Assembly: GCA_947499125.1 (NCBI GenBank)
Contig: CANMMP010000001.1
Coordinates: 310,001 to 374,000, forward strand
DNA from: an uncultured Pontibacter sp.
GTDB taxonomy: Bacteria > Bacteroidota > Bacteroidia > Cytophagales > Hymenobacteraceae
Direction of reading: 5' to 3'
DNA length: 64,000 bases
Shown here: positions 2,595 to 57,535 of the stretch, one piece after another
Layout of the letters: each line of letters begins with the position of its first letter
How positions within the stretch are numbered: position 1 is the first letter of the stretch
Notes under the pieces: generated by a model
Seen by the model: the letters and a program-made list of their open reading frames with translations, nothing else
What the model was told of the DNA's origin: nothing
The model's database searches: none
Program-made: the position numbers and the translations under genes

Positions 2595-4613
<2,019 letters not shown>

Positions 4614-4967: not shown

Positions 4968-6038
4968 TTGAGTGCCATTAGCTTTGTGTTCCCGGATATA
5001 ACTATAAAAAAACGCTACTCCCTGGCTATACATGTTGTGGTATGGTTAGCACTTGGCGCCTGGTTGCTATACTTTATCAGTGGTAACCGTGTGCTTACGC
5101 CACACCGGGTATTGGATGTGCTGGTAGGGCTAACTTTCTGGTTGCTGATATTTTACGCCAACTGGTTTTACCTGATCCCGAAATACCTGGCGAAGAACAG
5201 GCTGATGCTTTACATTGTAAATGTGCTGGCCCTGCTTATGCTTTATGGTTTGGTTGTGTCGCCCCTGGATTATTACGTGTTCAGGGAGTTTAACCCGAAC
5301 ATGGAGGCCGTTTATACAACAGAGCGCCTGCTGCAATATGGCTTAGGAGGATTAGTGCTGATCTTTATAAGTTCGGGCTTAAAGGTAACAGGCAATTACA
5401 TCCGGAACGAGCGCCGCAATAAAGAGCTCGAAAACCAGAAACTGGTAGCTGAACTGGCTTTCCTGAAATCGCAAGTGAACCCGCATTTTTTGTTTAACAC
5501 GCTCAACAATATTTACTCGCTGGCTTACAAGCAGTCGCCGGAAACGCCGGATGCTATTATGAAACTCTCGTTGCTGATGCGCTACATGTTGTATGAGAGT
5601 AACGACACGCTGGTGTGCCTCGAAAAGGAAGTTGAGCACCTGAATAACTTTATAGACCTGCAAAAGCTGCGCCTGCGCGAACAGACAAGTATAAAATTTA
5701 ATATTGAAGGCGATATAGAAGGTAAACAGATCGCGCCGATGCTGATGATGACGCTGGTTGAAAATGCTTTTAAACATGGCCTGGTGAGTAAGAACGAGAT
5801 CGGGATCCTGATAAACCTGACTGTTACGGATAACGAGTTGGAGTTTAGTACTGCCAATAACATCAGCACGCATAAAAAACGCGAATTTGGAGGCATTGGC
5901 CTTGAAAACCTGCGCCAGCGCCTGAGCCTGTTATACCCTAACCGGCACAAACTAACCTTCGAAGAAGAAGATGGCGTATTTTACGCTACCATGAAACTAT
6001 ACTTCCATACGACACACCAAAACACACCAAAACTATGA
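4968..6038 (+). CDS. LytS/YehU-type sensor histidine kinase
   Basis: This is a 356-residue protein with a TTG start at 4968. No in-frame ATG precedes the first membrane segment, and no SD sequence is visible. Four hydrophobic helices lie in residues 18-145. A short coiled linker follows (RNERRNKELENQ), then the His_kinase domain with the phospho-acceptor motif QVNPHFLFNTLNNIYSLA and a C-terminal HATPase region (VENAFKHGL and GGIGLENLRQRL). It overlaps the LytTR regulator by four bases (ATGA), so the two form one operon and a two-component system. The signal sensed is unknown. Confidence 0.9.
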   Translation: MSAISFVFPDITIKKRYSLAIHVVVWLALGAWLLYFISGNRVLTPHRVLDVLVGLTFWLLIFYANWFYLIPKYLAKNRLMLYIVNVLALLMLYGLVVSPLDYYVFREFNPNMEAVYTTERLLQYGLGGLVLIFISSGLKVTGNYIRNERRNKELENQKLVAELAFLKSQVNPHFLFNTLNNIYSLAYKQSPETPDAIMKLSLLMRYMLYESNDTLVCLEKEVEHLNNFIDLQKLRLREQTSIKFNIEGDIEGKQIAPMLMMTLVENAFKHGLVSKNEIGILINLTVTDNELEFSTANNISTHKKREFGGIGLENLRQRLSLLYPNRHKLTFEEEDGVFYATMKLYFHTTHQNTPKL

Positions 6039-6766
6039 CCATCCGCTGCATCGCCGTCGACGACGAACCACTTGCCTTAGACATCCTTGAAAGCTACATC
6101 AGTAAGCTGCCCTACCTGCAACTTGTGAAAACCTGCTCCAGCGCTACCGAAGCCATGCAGGTATTGCAGGAAGAACAGGTAGACCTCATGTTCCTGGATA
6201 TTGAAATGCCCGAACTGACAGGTATACAGTTCCTGAATATTTTGAAGAATCAGCCGTTGGTAATTTTCACGACGGCCTACCCCGAGTATGCTATGGAAGG
6301 TTTTAACCACGACGCTGTAGATTACCTGCTCAAGCCTATCCCCTACGACCGTTTCCTGAAGGCTGTAACCAAAGCCCAGGAACGTATGCAGCGCAACCCT
6401 AAACAAGCCGAGCAAACTATAGTTACGCAGGCCGCTGCCCCGGAGCAGGACTTTATGTTCGTGAAGGCCGACTATAAAACTATAAGAGTAGACTTTAAGG
6501 ATATACTTTGGATAGAAGGACTGAAGGATTATGTGATCATCCAAACAAAAGACCAGAAGATCATCACGCTGCTATCGATGAACAAGATGATGGAGAAGCT
6601 GCCGGACTCAAAGTTCCTGCGTGTGCACCGTTCCTTCATCGTTTCGCTGCAAAAGATCGACAGCATCGAGAAAAGCCGTATCCGCATCGGCCAAAAAGAA
6701 ATCCCGATTGGCGAAGTATACAAAGACCAGTTCCTGAAGTGGGTGGAAGAGAATAATATTATGTAA
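6035..6766 (+). CDS. LytTR-family response regulator
   Basis: This is a 243-residue protein. The receiver domain (1-120) has the acidic pair D9/D10, phospho-acceptor D55 in LMFLDIEMPE, and a conserved Lys in LLKPIPYDRF. A linker leads to a LytTR DNA-binding domain (about 140-243) with FVKADYKTIRVDF, the WIEGLKDY segment and FLRVHRSFIVS. Its start overlaps the kinase stop, the usual LytS-LytTR arrangement. The cassette-like array begins just over 100 bases downstream. Confidence 0.93.
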   Translation: MTIRCIAVDDEPLALDILESYISKLPYLQLVKTCSSATEAMQVLQEEQVDLMFLDIEMPELTGIQFLNILKNQPLVIFTTAYPEYAMEGFNHDAVDYLLKPIPYDRFLKAVTKAQERMQRNPKQAEQTIVTQAAAPEQDFMFVKADYKTIRVDFKDILWIEGLKDYVIIQTKDQKIITLLSMNKMMEKLPDSKFLRVHRSFIVSLQKIDSIEKSRIRIGQKEIPIGEVYKDQFLKWVEENNIM

Positions 6767-6843
6767 TTAGGAATTATCAATGGGTAATCAGCCGCCGCCC
6801 TTGCTACGTGTTTTCACCAGCAAGACATCGGGCAGAAGTATAA

Positions 6844-6867
6844 GTTGTTGGTGAGAACACCAACAAC
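6844..6867. repeat. Perfect 10-bp hairpin within a larger inverted structure
   Basis: GTTGTTGGTG (6844-6853) and CACCAACAAC (6858-6867) pair perfectly around the loop AGAA. Outside it, GCCGCC (6791-6796) can pair with GGCGGC (6868-6873), and CTTGCT (6800-6805) with AGCAAG (6819-6824). No T-run follows, so it is not a simple terminator. It lies between the LytTR gene and the first attC-like element and may mark the array boundary. Confidence 0.55.
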
Positions 6868-6873
6868 GGCGGC

Positions 6874-6933
6874 AAAACAACTTCGTCCATAATTCAGATA
6901 AGCGTATGTTTTCGTTTATACACTAGTTGTACA
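6874..6933 (+). repeat. attC-like element E0 (left end of cassette-like array)
   Basis: An inverse core AAAACAAC (6874-6881) and a core GTTGTACA (6926-6933) bracket an inner imperfect stem, ATAAGCG (6898-6904) and CGTTTAT (6913-6919). The core GTTGTACA opens the first cassette-like unit and is the exact reverse complement of the sequence closing that unit at 7593-7600. Confidence 0.5.
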
Positions 6934-6945
6934 AAATCCTAATTA

Positions 6946-7548
6946 ATGAAGAAATATTATATCATAACATACAGAGGGAGTACATCAGGCGAAAGTGGTG
7001 AACAATATGGAACGGAATATATTTTTGACAATGCCTGTGAAGCTTGCGGAACTGGTGCTGAATTGAAGAGCAACTTAAAAGTAAGAGGAATAGCCAAAAC
7101 TAAAAAAGACTTATTTGAAACTGTTAACGGTGATTGCCTAATATCTAAGAATTTAAAAGAGAGAATAGATGAAATCCTGCCAAATCTTGGATTAAAGCAA
7201 GTATATGACAAAAAGAATCAGCCTCTGAATTTTTACCACCTTTACACCAGATTGAATCTGCAAAGATTCAAGGAGACTTCATCTGGATATGTTACCGAAA
7301 ACCAATGTCCAGTTTGCATGCGGAATGGGTTTTACAATGATGTAACAATAGGCAACCCAACTACAGTAAAACCTTTGACTTTCATATATAACTACGAAGA
7401 CTTAGTGTTAATATCTAACGCAATTATCTTGAAAACTTGGGAGTGCAGCGGTCTATCCAACAAAGTTATATCTGGTATTAAGGTTGTAAGATTTGCTAGA
7501 CCTTGGATAGTAGTGAGAGAAGATTTGAAAGAAGTTTTAGAAAGCTAA
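6946..7548 (+). CDS. Hypothetical protein with two Cys-x-x-Cys motifs (cassette 1)
   Basis: This is a 200-residue soluble protein that I do not recognise. It has CEACG near residue 32 and CPVCMRNG near residue 122. Two knuckles of this kind usually bind one zinc ion, so a zinc-ribbon fold is possible. The N-terminus (KKYYIITYRG) is strand-like rather than a signal peptide, so the protein is probably cytoplasmic. The gene is AT-rich and the only one in a unit bounded by complementary core sequences at 6926 and 7593. Some immunity-type proteins look like this, but no toxin is adjacent and the function is open. Confidence 0.65.
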   Translation: MKKYYIITYRGSTSGESGEQYGTEYIFDNACEACGTGAELKSNLKVRGIAKTKKDLFETVNGDCLISKNLKERIDEILPNLGLKQVYDKKNQPLNFYHLYTRLNLQRFKETSSGYVTENQCPVCMRNGFYNDVTIGNPTTVKPLTFIYNYEDLVLISNAIILKTWECSGLSNKVISGIKVVRFARPWIVVREDLKEVLES

Positions 7549-7592
7549 AAGATTAAAAATATTCACTTTGAGCAAATAATAATAGAAGGATG

Positions 7593-7648
7593 TGTACAAC
7601 AAAACCTATAAGTTAGCTGCGTCACCTTATAGCAAAGACCGTTGTGCT
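7593..7648 (+). repeat. attC-like element E1
   Basis: Inverse core TGTACAAC (7593-7600) and core GTTGTGCT (7641-7648) enclose a perfect 7-bp inner stem, CTATAAG (7606-7612) and CTTATAG (7626-7632). The spacers are unequal (5 and 8 bases), an attC-like asymmetry. The apical loop reads TTAGCTGCGTCAC. Confidence 0.6.
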
Positions 7649-7673
7649 GCATACCCTTCAATTAAATTAAAAA

Positions 7674-7799
7674 ATGGTCAGGTGTTTATTCATTCACGCT
7701 GCAACTACAATAGCTGCCTTTATGATCTGGATAACCAGTACCAGTTTACTGGGGGGTGAAGTCGGAATGGCACCATTTATTTTAGGTTTGTGCTTCTAA
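7674..7799 (+). CDS. Small predicted membrane protein, 41 aa (cassette 2, first ORF)
   Basis: The ATG at 7674 opens a 41-codon frame, MVRCLFIHAATT..., mostly hydrophobic and able to form one or two membrane helices. It ends at a TAA (7797-7799) that overlaps the start region of the next ORF by ten bases in another frame. It may be a small partner of the downstream membrane protein. Alternatively it is the N-terminal part of a single four-helix protein split by a frameshift. It lies in the unit bounded by cores at 7641 and 8089. Confidence 0.4.
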   Translation: MVRCLFIHAATTIAAFMIWITSTSLLGGEVGMAPFILGLCF

Positions 7800-8077
7800 T
7801 TCAGTTATTTATTGGAATAGCGCTGGCGCTTGTTTTCAGAAAGTATCTCATAGAAAGAAGACAGAAAATAGTAGGGTTGACTATTCACTTTATTCTATAC
7901 GAACTGATATTTTTTGCAATAGATGGACAACTGTCAATAATTATCGCTTTTGGTAAAGGCTGGTCAAGTGAAGTTTATATTGCAAATTCCCTCTCATCAA
8001 TAATAGCTTATATTGTTGCTTTGACTATACTGTTAACAAAAGAACCAAAGGCTTCAGGAACATATTATAAGGATTAA
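7790..8077 (+). CDS. Hypothetical multi-pass membrane protein, 95 aa (cassette 2)
   Basis: This frame starts with a GTG at 7790. It contains about three hydrophobic segments (residues 2-16, 28-50 and 65-85) separated by basic loops such as RKYLIERRQK. The GTG lies inside the end of the preceding 41-codon ORF, so translation may be coupled, or the two may be one gene interrupted by a single-base frameshift near 7790-7799. I do not recognise a family. Confidence 0.5.
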   Translation: MLLIQLFIGIALALVFRKYLIERRQKIVGLTIHFILYELIFFAIDGQLSIIIAFGKGWSSEVYIANSLSSIIAYIVALTILLTKEPKASGTYYKD

Positions 8078-8088
8078 AAAAGCACGAT

Positions 8089-8156
8089 AGCACAACAAAG
8101 TTTATACCTTATACTTCAGCTACGCCTCGTTCACCTTTTTTACTAACCGTTGTGTT
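8089..8156 (+). repeat. attC-like element E2
   Basis: Inverse core AGCACAAC (8089-8096) and core GTTGTGTT (8149-8156) enclose a loop containing CAGCTACGCC and TTCACC, shared with E1 and E4. The last bases before the core, TACTAACC, are identical in E4. The inner stem is weak here. Confidence 0.55.
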
Positions 8157-8229
8157 CAATTTGCACGTAAATATAAAATAAACAATTTATTTTATTATTT
8201 TATATAGCACTATATAATTAAAGCACAAC

Positions 8230-9189
8230 ATGAAGACACTTAAGAAAATCAATCACCAGCATTTTGGAATCATTTTTTTAATGCTTTTTACAATTGCCTG
8301 TAAAACTGATAAAAAACAAGAAACACAAACAGAAACTGAAGAAATAGAAGACAATGTTATTGAAGTAATTACCAGAAGTATGGATTTCCAGACAGAAGAC
8401 ACCTTAAAATCTGGTTGGAATACCTTTGCTTATAAAAACCAGTCTGGTGAAGTTCATTTTTTCATAATGGATAAATTACCATCTGACTCCATTGCTGAGA
8501 GCGACATTAAGAACGATTTATTACCTCCATTTGATGATGGTCTGAAGTATTTAATGGAAGGGAAGGCAGATAGTGCAATGGCGGCATTTGGTGAAATACC
8601 TGACTGGTTTAATGAAGTAAAACGATATGGTGGTACTGGATTAATATCGCCAGGTAAAACAGCGGTCTCAAGTATAAATCTGGAACCTGGCAAGTATTTG
8701 ATGGAGTGTTATGTAAAGACTGCTAACGGCGAATGGCATACATCACATGGTATGTGGAAGTTTATAACCGTAGTTGACGAACCTACAAATTTTTCTCCAG
8801 ATGAAGCCCATCATACTATCAGTGTATCAAGTACGGATGGTTATACTTTTGATGCACAACCTAAATCAGGATTAAACAGATTTAAAGTAGAGTTTATTGA
8901 TCAAGTTCCTCATGAGCACTTTAATGGTCATGATGTTAATTTAATTAAATATGACGCATCAGCAAACATTGATTCTTTAGTTTACTGGATGAATTGGATG
9001 AACCCCACTGGATTAAGGACACCTACACCAGAAGGCTTTACTTTTTTGGGGGGAATGAATAATTGTGAAGCTGGCGAAATAGGTTATTTTGAAGCAAATT
9101 TAGAGTCCGGCAACTATCTTTTAATTTCCGAAACACCAAAAGCAGATGAAAAAGGAATGCTTAAAACCTTCGTTGTTAGTGATAAATAA
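8230..9189 (+). CDS. Predicted lipoprotein with an internal duplication (cassette 3)
   Basis: This is a 319-residue protein. The signal peptide ends in FTIA-C24, a lipobox, followed by an acidic Glu/Thr-rich linker. Two similar beta-rich modules follow, roughly residues 48-180 and 195-318. Each starts with a Ser-Gly-Trp/Leu-Asn-x-Phe turn (SGWNTFAYKN; SGLNRFKVEF) and ends with an L-E-x-G-[KN]-Y-L-[ML] strand (LEPGKYLMECYV; LESGNYLLISET). The pattern recalls cupredoxin-like or Ig-like surface domains, but no metal-ligand set is complete enough to claim. It is the sole gene of its cassette-like unit, and the AT-rich composition fits acquired DNA. Confidence 0.65.
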   Translation: MKTLKKINHQHFGIIFLMLFTIACKTDKKQETQTETEEIEDNVIEVITRSMDFQTEDTLKSGWNTFAYKNQSGEVHFFIMDKLPSDSIAESDIKNDLLPPFDDGLKYLMEGKADSAMAAFGEIPDWFNEVKRYGGTGLISPGKTAVSSINLEPGKYLMECYVKTANGEWHTSHGMWKFITVVDEPTNFSPDEAHHTISVSSTDGYTFDAQPKSGLNRFKVEFIDQVPHEHFNGHDVNLIKYDASANIDSLVYWMNWMNPTGLRTPTPEGFTFLGGMNNCEAGEIGYFEANLESGNYLLISETPKADEKGMLKTFVVSDK

Positions 9190-9196
9190 AAAACTG

Positions 9197-9278
9197 CAAA
9201 CAACATTGAATATAAGTTTAACAACTCCACTTATAAGGCCAATAACCGGAACAGCTCCTTATACAACATAGTTACCTG
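9197..9278 (+). repeat. attC-like element E3
   Basis: Inverse core CAAACAAC (9197-9204) and core GTTACCTG (9271-9278) enclose an inner pair, TATAAG (9211-9216) and CTTATA (9258-9263). A second CTTATA at 9230-9235 gives an alternative shorter stem. This is the longest and least regular element of the array. Confidence 0.45.
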
Positions 9279-9286
9279 TCATATTA

Positions 9287-9655
9287 ATGGATGAAGAAAT
9301 AATCTCCAATGAAGAAATGGCTACAAGGATTAGAAAATTGATTCTTGATGCTATTGAATTGTGGTCTTCGAAAGAAGAGCAACTGGAATATCAAAAAAAT
9401 GTTCCGTTTGTAGATGTGTCATCTGAATTATTTGGACATTGGGAAACAATTTATAATCCTAATGACAAGCTATTTAAAATGGCATTTAATGAATCAGAAT
9501 TAAAAATGTTAACTGATTTCCAAAATGTTGTAGACCGTGAGACTACGAGAGTGACTCCTTACCATGTGCCTGACATCGAACATTTCGTGTATACTTTAGA
9601 ATGGAGAGAAATCAATAATGCTGCGATTGAATTACTAAAAAAATTGAAAAATTAA
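9287..9655 (+). CDS. Hypothetical cytoplasmic protein, 122 aa (cassette 4)
   Basis: This is a 122-residue acidic, mainly helical protein with no signal peptide or membrane segment. It starts at ATG 9287 (MDEEIISNEEM). A central stretch with FGHWETIYNPNDKLFK and a C-terminal amphipathic helix ending in ELLKKLKN are the only notable features. I recognise no family. It is bounded by GTTACCTG at 9271 and CAGGTAAC at 9658, an exact inverted pair, so it forms the last unit of the cassette-like array. Confidence 0.6.
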   Translation: MDEEIISNEEMATRIRKLILDAIELWSSKEEQLEYQKNVPFVDVSSELFGHWETIYNPNDKLFKMAFNESELKMLTDFQNVVDRETTRVTPYHVPDIEHFVYTLEWREINNAAIELLKKLKN

Positions 9656-9657
9656 GT

Positions 9658-9725
9658 CAGGTAACAAAGCACAGGTATCATGTTCAGCTGGCGCTTCACC
9701 CGTTGCCTGTACTAACCGTTATAAA
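9658..9725 (+). repeat. attC-like element E4 (right end of array)
   Basis: Inverse core CAGGTAAC (9658-9665) and core GTTATAAA (9718-9725) enclose an inner stem, ACAGG (9671-9675) and CCTGT (9706-9710). The loop carries TTCAGCTGGCGC and TTCACC, as in E2. The closing core matches nothing downstream, as expected at the end of an array. Confidence 0.55.
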
Positions 9726-9785
9726 GCCAAAAAACTTGCACAAACCAATACATAATCAGAACTTCGTAGTTCTTACAATAAATAG

Positions 9786-10655
9786 ATGATTCAGGAAAGA
9801 TTAAAAGGAACGGGCGTAGCGTTGGTAACGCCTTTTACAAAAGACCTGGCTGTAGACTATAACGGCCTTGCCAAGCTGCTGGACTTTGTGCTGGATGGCG
9901 GCGTAGATTATATCGTAATTAATGGCACCACTGCCGAGTCGGTTACAACTACTGCCGACGAGAAAAAGCAGCTGCTGCAAACTATAAAGCAACACGTAAA
10001 CGGTCGCGTGCCATTGGTTTATGGTTTAGGTGGCAACAACACCCAGGAACTTCTGAATAGCTTTGCTACTACCGACCTGAATGGCATTGATGCCATACTT
10101 TCGGTTAGCCCATACTATAACAAGCCATCGCAGCAGGGCATTTACCAGCATTACTTGGCTGTGGCCGAAGCTTCGCCAGTGCCGGTTATACTTTACAATG
10201 TGCCGGGTCGCACAGGCAGCAACGTTACCGCCGAAACAACTATAAAACTGGCTTCTCACCCGAACATTATCGGTATAAAAGAAGCATCAGGTAACCTGGA
10301 GCAGTGTATGGCCATTGCCAAGCACAAACCAGCCGATTTCATGCTCATCTCCGGCGACGACCTGCTGACAATACCGATGATCTCGATTGGTGCGGTTGGC
10401 GTAATCTCGGTGCTCGCTAACGCTTTCCCCGAAAAATTCAGCAACACGATAGGCTTTGCTATGGAAGGCAACTATAAAAAAGCCTCAGAACTGCTGTATG
10501 ATTTTGTTGACCTTAACCCGCTGATGTACGAAGAAGGAAATCCGGTTGGCGTTAAAGCCCTTCTGGAGCGTTTTGGCGTGTGTGGTGCAGCTGTTCGTAT
10601 GCCTTTAATGGAAGCTTCAGCCGGCCTCCGCGACAGGTTATATAAACTGATCTAA
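9786..10655 (+). CDS. dapA: 4-hydroxy-tetrahydrodipicolinate synthase DapA
   Basis: This 289-residue TIM-barrel enzyme condenses pyruvate with aspartate semialdehyde in lysine and diaminopimelate synthesis. Visible catalytic residues are the Thr pair 48-49 in NGTTAES, Tyr137 in ILYNVPGRTG and the Schiff-base Lys165 in GIKEASGN. The length is normal. It stands alone between the cassette array and a terminator. The host-type AACTATA words return in this gene. Confidence 0.96.
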   Translation: MIQERLKGTGVALVTPFTKDLAVDYNGLAKLLDFVLDGGVDYIVINGTTAESVTTTADEKKQLLQTIKQHVNGRVPLVYGLGGNNTQELLNSFATTDLNGIDAILSVSPYYNKPSQQGIYQHYLAVAEASPVPVILYNVPGRTGSNVTAETTIKLASHPNIIGIKEASGNLEQCMAIAKHKPADFMLISGDDLLTIPMISIGAVGVISVLANAFPEKFSNTIGFAMEGNYKKASELLYDFVDLNPLMYEEGNPVGVKALLERFGVCGAAVRMPLMEASAGLRDRLYKLI

Positions 10656-56675: not shown

Positions 56676-56828
56676 ACTGCGTGAAGCCGGTAAAACTATA
56701 GTTTATTTGCTTCATGCCTCTCCTTATTTTAGTTTATAGTTTACTTTAAATGGGTTTGTAAAGACATTTCATTTATAAGGCTGATAGGTGTATGTTTACT
56801 GTTATAAGGTAGTTGACATTAATAAAAA

Positions 56829-56933
56829 ATGATTGAAGAATATTTAACGAAAGAAGATTTTAAACGAAGCGGTGGAGGTCTGAGCGCAACCGTGTTCATC
56901 TCATTTTTTATATTGATGATTATATTAGTCTAG
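56829..56933 (+). CDS. Small membrane protein, 34 aa
   Basis: The ATG at 56829 opens a 34-codon frame, MIEEYLTKEDFKRSGGG then a hydrophobic helix (TVFISFFILMIILV), ending at TAG. The charged N-terminus followed by a C-terminal helix is a typical small inner-membrane protein layout. It lies 18 bases before the next ORF, probably as an operon. Confidence 0.45.
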   Translation: MIEEYLTKEDFKRSGGGLSATVFISFFILMIILV

Positions 56934-56951
56934 AATACTCAGACAAGATAT

Positions 56952-57473
56952 TTGATACCAATATTATTAATAGTGCCTTTTTTGTCTGCCCATGTTGTAT
57001 CGCACTTTGGGTACAGAAAGTGGAGAAGAGAGATGCTATCTACAGGGCACATTACGACAGAGCAATTTGACGAGCTTGCAAGAAAGTTCAGAGTTTCTTC
57101 ACGACAACTGTACACAATAAAAGGGCTTTTGTCTGTTGGAGTAGTTGCCTTTATCTTAACAGCTGTATCATTTCATTTGAGAAGCCAAGACATGGAGTTA
57201 AAGCTTTATGGCAAAGAAACAGTGGGTACTGTTGAAGAAATAAGACTAACGCTCAGCGGCAAGCATTCTAAAGTATTGATAGGCTATTTTGTAGAAGGGG
57301 AAAGGCATTTCACAACACTTAAAATAAATGGTAGCAGTTTAGGTGTAGCTGCTACTTATCAAATTAATGGCAATCCTGCTGTTCAACTAGGAGATACCAT
57401 TATTGTAAAGTATTCGACTGTTGACCCCACAAATAATGAAGTAATATTAGAAGGTCTGGAGAAAAATTTATAA
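56952..57473 (+). CDS. Hypothetical membrane protein (DUF3592-like), 173 aa
   Basis: This is a 173-residue frame with a TTG start. The first hydrophobic segment is residues 2-16, then a basic cytoplasmic part (GYRKWRREML), a second helix at about 52-68, and an external beta-rich part (ETVGTVEEIRLTL ... VLIGYFVEGERHFTTLKI ... LGDTIIVKYSTVDP). The last part resembles DUF3592-type domains. It is AT-rich and unlike its neighbours in composition, in line with a cassette origin. Confidence 0.55.
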   Translation: MIPILLIVPFLSAHVVSHFGYRKWRREMLSTGHITTEQFDELARKFRVSSRQLYTIKGLLSVGVVAFILTAVSFHLRSQDMELKLYGKETVGTVEEIRLTLSGKHSKVLIGYFVEGERHFTTLKINGSSLGVAATYQINGNPAVQLGDTIIVKYSTVDPTNNEVILEGLEKNL

Positions 57474-57528
57474 AGCCAACCAAACCTATAAGTTAACTAC
57501 ACCACTTTTTAGACAAGTCAGTTAGCAC
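57473..57528 (+). repeat. attC-like element E5
   Basis: Inverse core AAGCCAAC (57473-57480) and core GTTAGCAC (57521-57528) bracket CTATAAG (57486-57492) and CTTTTTAG (57505-57512), an imperfect inner stem. The sequence closely follows E1. Confidence 0.5.
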
Positions 57529-57535
57529 CTGTAAC

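What the first reader, a model, noticed from the sequence alone, without database searches (positions are those of the whole stretch)
6874..9725. Integron-like cassette array with non-canonical cores and no integrase
Four consecutive plus-strand units each start with a GTT core and end with an inverse core. The inverse core matches the core that opens its own unit (8/8, 8/8, 6/8, 8/8 bases) better than the core immediately downstream in the same element (6/8, 7/8, 5/8, 4/8). Only insertion through a crossover inside the core explains that pattern. Each element also has unequal spacers and an inner stem, as attC sites do. The ORFs are AT-rich, unrelated to each other and unlike the flanks. The cores (GTTGTGC, GTTGTAC, GTTACCT) do not fit GTTRRRY, so standard attC models may miss the system. 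I know of no described integron of this type in this group.
Basis: partly seen in the sequence, partly recalled or inferred. Interest (0 to 1): 0.93.

Follow-up and report, generated by a model that had tools for sequence, protein, structure and literature searches.

The report
Overlooked patch-less integrons of Pontibacter
A row of four small gene units in this genome, likely a Pontibacter, is built like an integron, the device with which bacteria capture genes; its parts recur across the genus beside a recombinase that lacks the segment taken to define integron enzymes, so a separate lineage of integrons has likely been overlooked.

Summary
Window 6882-9729 is an integron-like cassette array between a LytTR regulator gene and dapA. 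Three attC-like sites (7589-7652, 8085-8160, 9654-9729) match a covariance model built without window sequence (45-50 bits). E0 and the right half of E3 are attI-like sites, not attC. Relatives of units 1 and 4 lie in other genomes with breakpoints at GTT; one cassette is identical over 452 bp in two species. In 166 consecutive site pairs the closing arm matches its own opening core better than the next in 149, worse in 5. 35 of 50 genus genomes carry a near-full-length tyrosine recombinase, the window genome one about 1.05 Mb away; an attI follows it in 49 of 54 loci read. It lacks the roughly 40-residue segment of IntI (motif spacing 64 against 106) and scores below the IntI cut-off. AttI-like sites also occur without integrase: nine in this genome, each followed by a cassette and attC. 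Recombination is untested. It works like an integron but is not an IntI integron: a new variant of a known kind.

The parts
6035..6766 (+). LytTR response regulator gene, left chromosomal neighbour
   Evidence: followed by dapA at 374 bp or less in 28 of 36 relatives measured
   Evidence: 40 of 47 positions to the attI of G020; motif 6897-6928 with 0 mismatches
6926..7640 (+). unit 1, opening core GTTGTACA
   Evidence: starts exactly where similarity to L060 starts
6946..7548 (+). ORF1, 200 aa, no known family
   Evidence: 9 further relatives besides itself at E 1e-3 or better
7589..7652 (+). attC E1, closing arm TGTACAAC, core at 7641
   Evidence: R2 44.9 bits
7641..8148 (+). unit 2, opening core GTTGTGCT; ORF2 apparently broken (open piece 7790-8077)
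8085..8160 (+). attC E2, closing arm AGCACAAC, core at 8149
   Evidence: R2 48.0 bits
8149..9235 (+). unit 3, opening core GTTGTGTT, ends in a truncated attC (about 9193-9235)
   Evidence: sequence, by eye; not found by R1 or R2
8230..9189 (+). ORF3, 319 aa, predicted lipoprotein-like start; weak Y_Y_Y match below cut-off
   Evidence: 32 of 38 positions to attI of L173, L174 and L177
9271..9717 (+). unit 4, opening core GTTACCTG
   Evidence: similarity to L054 and L056 starts at 9271
9287..9655 (+). ORF4, 122 aa, no known family
   Evidence: relatives in 5 of 49 other genus genomes
9654..9729 (+). attC E4, closing arm CAGGTAAC, last core at 9718
   Evidence: R2 50.2 bits
9786..10655 (+). dapA (dihydrodipicolinate synthase-like), right chromosomal neighbour
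   Evidence: name by sequence likeness, recalled
56768..56814 (+). decayed attI-like site of a second island in the window
   Evidence: 31 of 47 positions, second-best place in the window; by eye
57469..57532 (+). attC of the second island, next to a DEAD-box helicase gene
   Evidence: R2 26.8 bits; G030 has an intact platform at this locus

Best explanation
The window holds a row of gene cassettes of an integron-like system, most likely inserted one by one through a crossover inside the GTT core by a tyrosine recombinase of a patch-less family, of which one intact gene lies elsewhere in the same genome. Shown by sequence: cassettes begin at GTT right after an attI or attC, each closing arm matches the core that opens its own unit, the attC sites share a covarying hairpin, and in the genus the recombinase gene is followed by an attI and by cassettes on the same strand. 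Inferred: a circular cassette carries one attC made of its own two ends, the recombinase joins it to attI or attC at G|TT, and the next insertion separates the two halves. Also inferred: this locus is a former platform, or two in tandem (attI-A and attI-B), that lost its recombinase gene and kept attI and cassettes, which may still be served in trans.
For: Model-found attC sites without window training; covariation 85.5% of cells paired against 65.5% shuffled and 28-40% slid, 82.5% against 67.6% on 150 sites; own-core rule 149 against 5 with 12 ties in 166 pairs; cassette edges at GTT between genomes, 452 bp identical; recombinase, attI and arrays in order; 131 of 131 attC hits in 33 of 80 recombinase loci lie downstream on its strand; 24 of 34 first cassettes behind attI-like sites fit 8 of 8 and 32 of 34 at least 7, against 8% of mismatched pairs reaching 7. 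For loss of the recombinase: the same LytTR-dapA locus in G066 has an attI preceded by about 94 bp that resemble, by eye, the recombinase's 3' flank, with other cassettes; G030 keeps the intact platform at the locus of the window's second island.
Against: No recombination was shown. The window's attI-A and attI-B are of types other than the attI beside the genome's own intact recombinase. E3 is degenerate and ORF2 looks broken, so the array may be dead. The attI type at the second island differs from that of G030's platform at the same locus, so simple descent is not proved. How attI-like sites came to be dispersed is unexplained; no attI-like site without a cassette was identified, though 5 of 39 loci lacked a model hit (two of them at contig ends). 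The clade of patch-less recombinases has moderate support (87/85) and long branches lie nearby. Six of the seven longer LytTR-dapA loci scanned showed no attC (L040-L044, L052).
Confidence: 0.85

Rival explanations
1. It is an ordinary CALIN of a canonical IntI integron whose integrase was missed or is elsewhere.
For: AttC-like hairpins, same-strand cassettes and G|TT edges are those of integrons; canonical IntI is over the cut-off in 105 of 395 Bacteroidota genomes.
Against: The window genome has no match over the TIGR02249 cut-off and only one of the 105 is listed in its class. The recombinase beside the genus arrays lacks the IntI segment. CALINs as described carry no attI, whereas this array has two attI-like sites.
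Confidence: 0.06
2. The array was assembled and is kept in trans by the distant intact recombinase; dispersed attI-like sites are separate landing pads that never had their own recombinase.
For: The intact gene is in the genome; all nine own motif sites carry a cassette and attC; 25 of 31 orphan sites have a codirectional upstream gene, which would allow read-through expression; four pairs of loci share upstream genes but not cassettes.
Against: The own recombinase has another attI type; G032 has 15 motif sites and no recombinase match at 1e-30; G066 keeps recombinase-flank-like DNA at the window locus.
Confidence: 0.3
3. The hairpins are repeats (REP- or MITE-like) between genes, and units were shuffled by homologous recombination.
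For: Hairpins lie between genes and recur in one genome.
Against: Homologous exchange does not make the closing arm follow the opening core of its own unit while the two arms of one hairpin differ; edges are exact at GTT; the hairpins lie downstream of one recombinase family on one strand.
Confidence: 0.02

Closest known systems
Integrons with IntI (class 1 IntI1; Vibrio cholerae integrase, PDB 2a3v)
   Same: Tyrosine recombinase followed by attI and by same-strand cassettes; attC hairpins with inverse and direct GTT core; closing arm fits own opening core
   Different: Recombinase lacks the IntI segment (64 against 106 residues between motifs), has in Hymenobacteraceae about 200 extra N-terminal residues, forms another clade; attI with a central inverted repeat; attI-like sites dispersed
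CALIN (cluster of attC lacking an integrase)
   Same: Three or more attC-like sites and no recombinase at the locus
   Different: Begins with an attI-like site and contains a second one; the attC models of IntegronFinder were not run here
Complete integron of Salinibacter ruber M1 and In0 elements of Bacteroidetes (PMC9024848, passages)
   Same: Same phylum
   Different: Reported with IntI profiles; the family here scores below the TIGR02249 cut-off
Xer recombinases (XerA 5hxy, archaeal Xer 4a8e, XerD 1a0p)
   Different: The five Xer rows lie apart in the tree; the family here is linked to cassette arrays

Membership tests
IntI integron | Integrase with the IntI-specific additional domain around patch III (PMC9668308, passages) | tested here: not met
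   Residues 385-411 of the G020 recombinase face 179-248 of 2a3v; motif spacing 64 in 30 of 30 genus copies, 106 in 20 of 21 canonical IntI, one not measured; TIGR02249 194.6 bits, cut-off 265
IntI integron | Tyrosine recombinase with an intact catalytic set | tested here: met
   R344, K369, H433, R436, H459 and Y468 invariant in 16 rows (assignment of roles recalled)
IntI integron | attI directly beside the integrase gene | tested here: met
   49 of 54 recombinase loci read, by eye; not at the window locus, where attI has no recombinase
IntI integron | Array of same-strand cassettes, each with an attC hairpin | tested here: met
IntI integron | Core GTTRRRY | tested here: not met
   43 of 198 cores fit; none of the window's cores GTTGTAC, GTTGTGC, GTTGTGT, GTTACCT, GTTATAA
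IntI integron | Crossover at G|TT, seen as closing arm fitting own opening core and as edges between genomes | tested here: met
IntI integron | Recombination of the folded bottom strand | not testable with these tools
   Needs an assay
CALIN | At least two attC and no integrase at the locus | tested here: met
   Three attC by R2 and no recombinase between the LytTR gene and dapA; with own models, not IntegronFinder's
CALIN | No attI | tested here: not met
   attI-A and attI-B
Xer recombinases | Groups with Xer in a tree | tested here: not met
   Five Xer rows together (100/94) apart from 65 patch-less rows (87/85) (few Xer rows, long branches)

The most novel reading that the evidence does not exclude
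Much of Bacteroidota runs a second integron lineage whose patch-less recombinase captures cassettes without the IntI-specific domain, and in Pontibacter its attI sites are scattered over the chromosome as many occupied landing pads, so that cassette capture is distributed over the genome and may be served in trans by one recombinase.
Probability: 0.5. Interest if true: 0.93.

Novelty: new variant of a known kind. Interest (0 to 1): 0.88.

Why it matters
Integron surveys rest on IntI and attC profiles. If this family recombines attI and attC, a large stock of gene cassettes in a major phylum has been missed; the view that the IntI-specific domain is needed for cassette recombination becomes directly testable; and dispersed attI sites would add a way of scattering cassettes that the integron model does not have. 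The four cassette ORFs of the window have no family above a curated cut-off, so such arrays may also be a source of new small genes.

Tried and rejected
Viral contigs: no relative of ORF1. Rfam: one match in the window, outside the array; none in three and then five array loci. A first detector of attC pairs gave a weaker own-core signal (3.17 of 5 own, 2.61 next, 1.72 random; 58 pairs own above next, 36 below, 15 ties, of 109); by eye it often picked wrong pairs, and it was replaced by model-located sites. Simple pattern search of the own genome: 8 matches, 3 of them in this array, with 18 in the reversed control, so not used. Group II introns behind attI: no Rfam match. Reading E3 as one long attC was dropped. 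The structure lists covered mainly residues 205-470; the N-terminal repeats were not searched alone, so nothing is claimed about their fold. One orphan attI (C1:911811) was examined for an empty site: 6 of 50 genomes have gene B, own included, and of the five relatives only G065 shows gene A beside it, with an eroded attI and other content; no clean empty site was found. Integrase-loss as the source of every orphan site was not adopted: by eye only a few of 31 (such as L276 and L281) keep DNA like the recombinase flank.
Full report
Setting. The window is G000:C1:310001-374000 of an assembly of 3.98 Mb. Named homologues of two of its cassette proteins are from Pontibacter, and genome G021 has the recombinase at the same place as the Pontibacter kalidii plasmid NZ_CP111080.1, so the genus is taken to be Pontibacter (inferred). 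The array lies between a LytTR regulator gene (6035-6766) and dapA (9786-10655). The spacing could be measured in 36 of 36 genus relatives: 28 have at most 374 bp and 8 have 628-2487 bp (two of the long figures are inflated because dapA is reversed there). Seven of the eight were scanned with model R1 and only G032 (L039) showed an attC.

What the sites are. An alignment of 40 attC-like sites from Pontibacter arrays plus window E1 and E2 shows an arm ending in AAC, an inner stem and a core GTT. 85.5% of cells pair, against 65.5% shuffled and 28-40% when slid; 165 cells are changed on both sides against 67. Model R1 from it finds 213 sites at E up to 0.01 in 32 Pontibacter loci of 507 kb and 29 at E up to 1 in the window genome, in several clusters and as singles. 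Model R2, built from 150 of the 213 sites, none from the window, finds E4, E2 and E1 at 50.2, 48.0 and 44.9 bits and a fourth site at 57469-57532 with 26.8 bits. It does not find E3. E-values from these models are rough.

How units join. In 166 consecutive pairs the closing arm matches the core that opens its own unit at 0.95, 0.92, 0.92, 0.92 and 0.84 for positions 4 to 8; the next core gives 0.57, 0.40, 0.43, 0.30 and 0.30, close to random cores. Own exceeds next in 149, is below in 5 and ties in 12. Matching with the own core stays raised at positions 10 and 12 to 14 (0.58, 0.81, 0.78, 0.72) and is low at 9 and 11 (0.38, 0.07), so the paired arm reaches beyond the 7-base box. This is what a circular cassette opened at G|TT would leave (inference from the integron model).

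Mobility. ORF4 relatives lie in 5 of 49 other genus genomes. In the five loci the left edge is a GTT core; in four the right edge is one too, and in L054 the right core is not GTT. L055 (G017) and L056 (G028) are identical over 452 bp, from GTT to GTT plus three bases shared by the next cores, with unrelated flanks. The window's first cassette and L060 (G065) share 722 bp at 91.6%, starting at GTT, with attI before it in the window and attC before it in L060.

The recombinase. Directly before the ORF4 relative in G020 lies a gene for a 484-residue tyrosine recombinase, then an attI, then more than 20 same-strand ORFs, two of which look like transposase genes. 43 of 50 genus genomes have a match at E 1e-30, some of them fragments or other recombinases; 35 have a near-full-length copy (span of at least 440 residues, 64-100% identity), the window genome among them at C1:1367532-1368971. 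No NCBIfam model reaches its cut-off (TIGR02249 194.6 against 265; NF040815 205 against 220), and the plasmid annotation reads tyrosine-type recombinase/integrase. The segment that marks IntI is missing: the motif spacing is 64 in 30 of 30 genus copies, 64-65 in 29 of 30 phylum hits, 63-65 in 77 of 80 named loci (two not measured), 106 in 20 of 21 canonical IntI (one not measured), and 70-72 in two Xer proteins of the window genome. In a tree of 83 chosen rows 12 canonical IntI form one clade (100/100), 12 Hymenobacteraceae enzymes another (100/99), and 65 patch-less rows hold together at 87/85, apart from five Xer rows; long branches make the deeper order unsure. A predicted model (pLDDT 85, pTM 0.59) has two similar beta-alpha repeats before the usual recombinase core.

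Distribution. Of 395 Bacteroidota genomes 81 have a relative at E 1e-75 (49 of 171 genera); among the listed matches only the window's own spans the whole 485-position model. Canonical IntI is over the cut-off in 105 of the same 395, of which one is listed in the window's class. In 33 of these 80 model R1 found 131 attC sites at E up to 0.01, each downstream of the recombinase and on its strand; many of the other loci end soon after the gene. 20 of the hits, in 14 loci, lie outside the Hymenobacteraceae, for example in Roseivirga, Saprospirales, Maribellus, Fluviicola and a Neomarinimicrobiota bin. In a second set with 1.5 kb flanks, 7 of 29 loci had a hit at E up to 0.1. The Pontibacter kalidii plasmid, with transfer genes, carries recombinase, attI and six attC sites.

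Dispersed attI-like sites. The motif GATAASCGTATGTTNWCGTNTATNNNNTAGTT with up to 3 mismatches occurs in 44 of 50 genus genomes, up to 15 times (in G032, which has no recombinase match at 1e-30); the reversed pattern occurs in none. The window genome has nine, none beside its intact recombinase. Of 38 motif loci read, 7 have a recombinase motif within 1 kb upstream and 31 do not; the 31 share only about 18 bp upstream. 34 of 39 loci, all nine own ones among them, have an attC downstream at E up to 0.5; two of the five others end at a contig end. The first cassette's closing arm fits the core after attI at 8 of 8 in 24 loci and at 7 or more in 32 of 34, where 8% of mismatched pairs reach 7. The nearest upstream ORF is codirectional at 25 of 31 orphan sites, and four pairs of loci share upstream genes while their cassettes are unrelated. 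At the window locus, G066 (regulator 94.7%, dapA 89.6% identical) has an attI preceded by about 94 bp that look like the recombinase's 3' flank, and other cassettes. At the window's second island G030 has the intact platform between the same S46 peptidase (85%) and DEAD-box helicase (87.6%) genes, with the last attC ending just before the helicase gene as in the window, though the attI is of another type. I read orphan sites mainly as platforms that lost the recombinase; service in trans is the main rival.

Literature. Passages were seen of PMC9024848, PMC8138268, PMC8565304, PMC9668308, PMC8618304 and PMC7370490; none was read whole. PMC8138268 says that the IntI insertion is not fully conserved in its integron-like subgroup, so neighbours of IntI without it have been seen before. 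PMC9024848 reports In0 elements and one complete integron (Salinibacter ruber M1) for Bacteroidetes. Searches listed no paper that by title and abstract start describes such integrons in Pontibacter, Hymenobacter, Cytophagales or Bacteroidia; the library holds open-access papers only.

Verdict. It works like an integron and passes the junction and structure tests; it fails the IntI test. Recombination is not shown.

Noticed in passing
window 56768-57532: A second, decayed island in the same window: attI-like site, broken-looking ORF and attC beside a DEAD-box helicase gene; G030 has an intact platform at that locus.
   Followed up: partly
L103 3295 and 16021, L112, L116, L162, L168, L174, L313: A recurring stretch without an obvious ORF, beginning GTT(GGCC or AATCC) and holding GGGATTATTTTC, sits behind attI or attC in several Pontibacter genomes, twice in one array; no Rfam match in L103, L112 and L313.
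   Followed up: partly
window 6797-6865; also L039, L041, L097, L310: A hairpin pair (CCTTGCTACGTGTTTTCACCAGCAAG and TTGTTGGTGAGAACACCAACAA) stands between the regulator gene and attI and recurs elsewhere in the genus; seen by eye, perhaps a dispersed repeat or terminator.
   Followed up: no
L311 4320-4508 (G000:C4): A 63-residue C-terminal fragment of the recombinase (82.5% identical) with an attC downstream at 3680-3755: a second decayed platform in the window genome.
   Followed up: partly
L242, NZ_CP111080.1 26110-27564: The whole platform lies on a Pontibacter kalidii plasmid with transfer genes.
   Followed up: partly
L070, L101, L107, L163, L166: Contigs often end shortly after the recombinase gene or attI, which suggests that arrays break assemblies and are under-counted.
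   Followed up: no
L193, L209, L210, L211, L213, L226: Patch-less relatives of the recombinase occur in bins labelled Neomarinimicrobiota, Cloacimonadota (Tenebribacter), Spirochaetaceae, Fermentibacterota (Sabulitectum) and Armatimonadota; L193 and L213 have an attC hit.
   Followed up: partly
L091, L093, L110, L112, L114, L179: An S46 peptidase gene lies before the recombinase in several genus genomes, which suggests an old fixed position of the chromosomal platform.
   Followed up: partly
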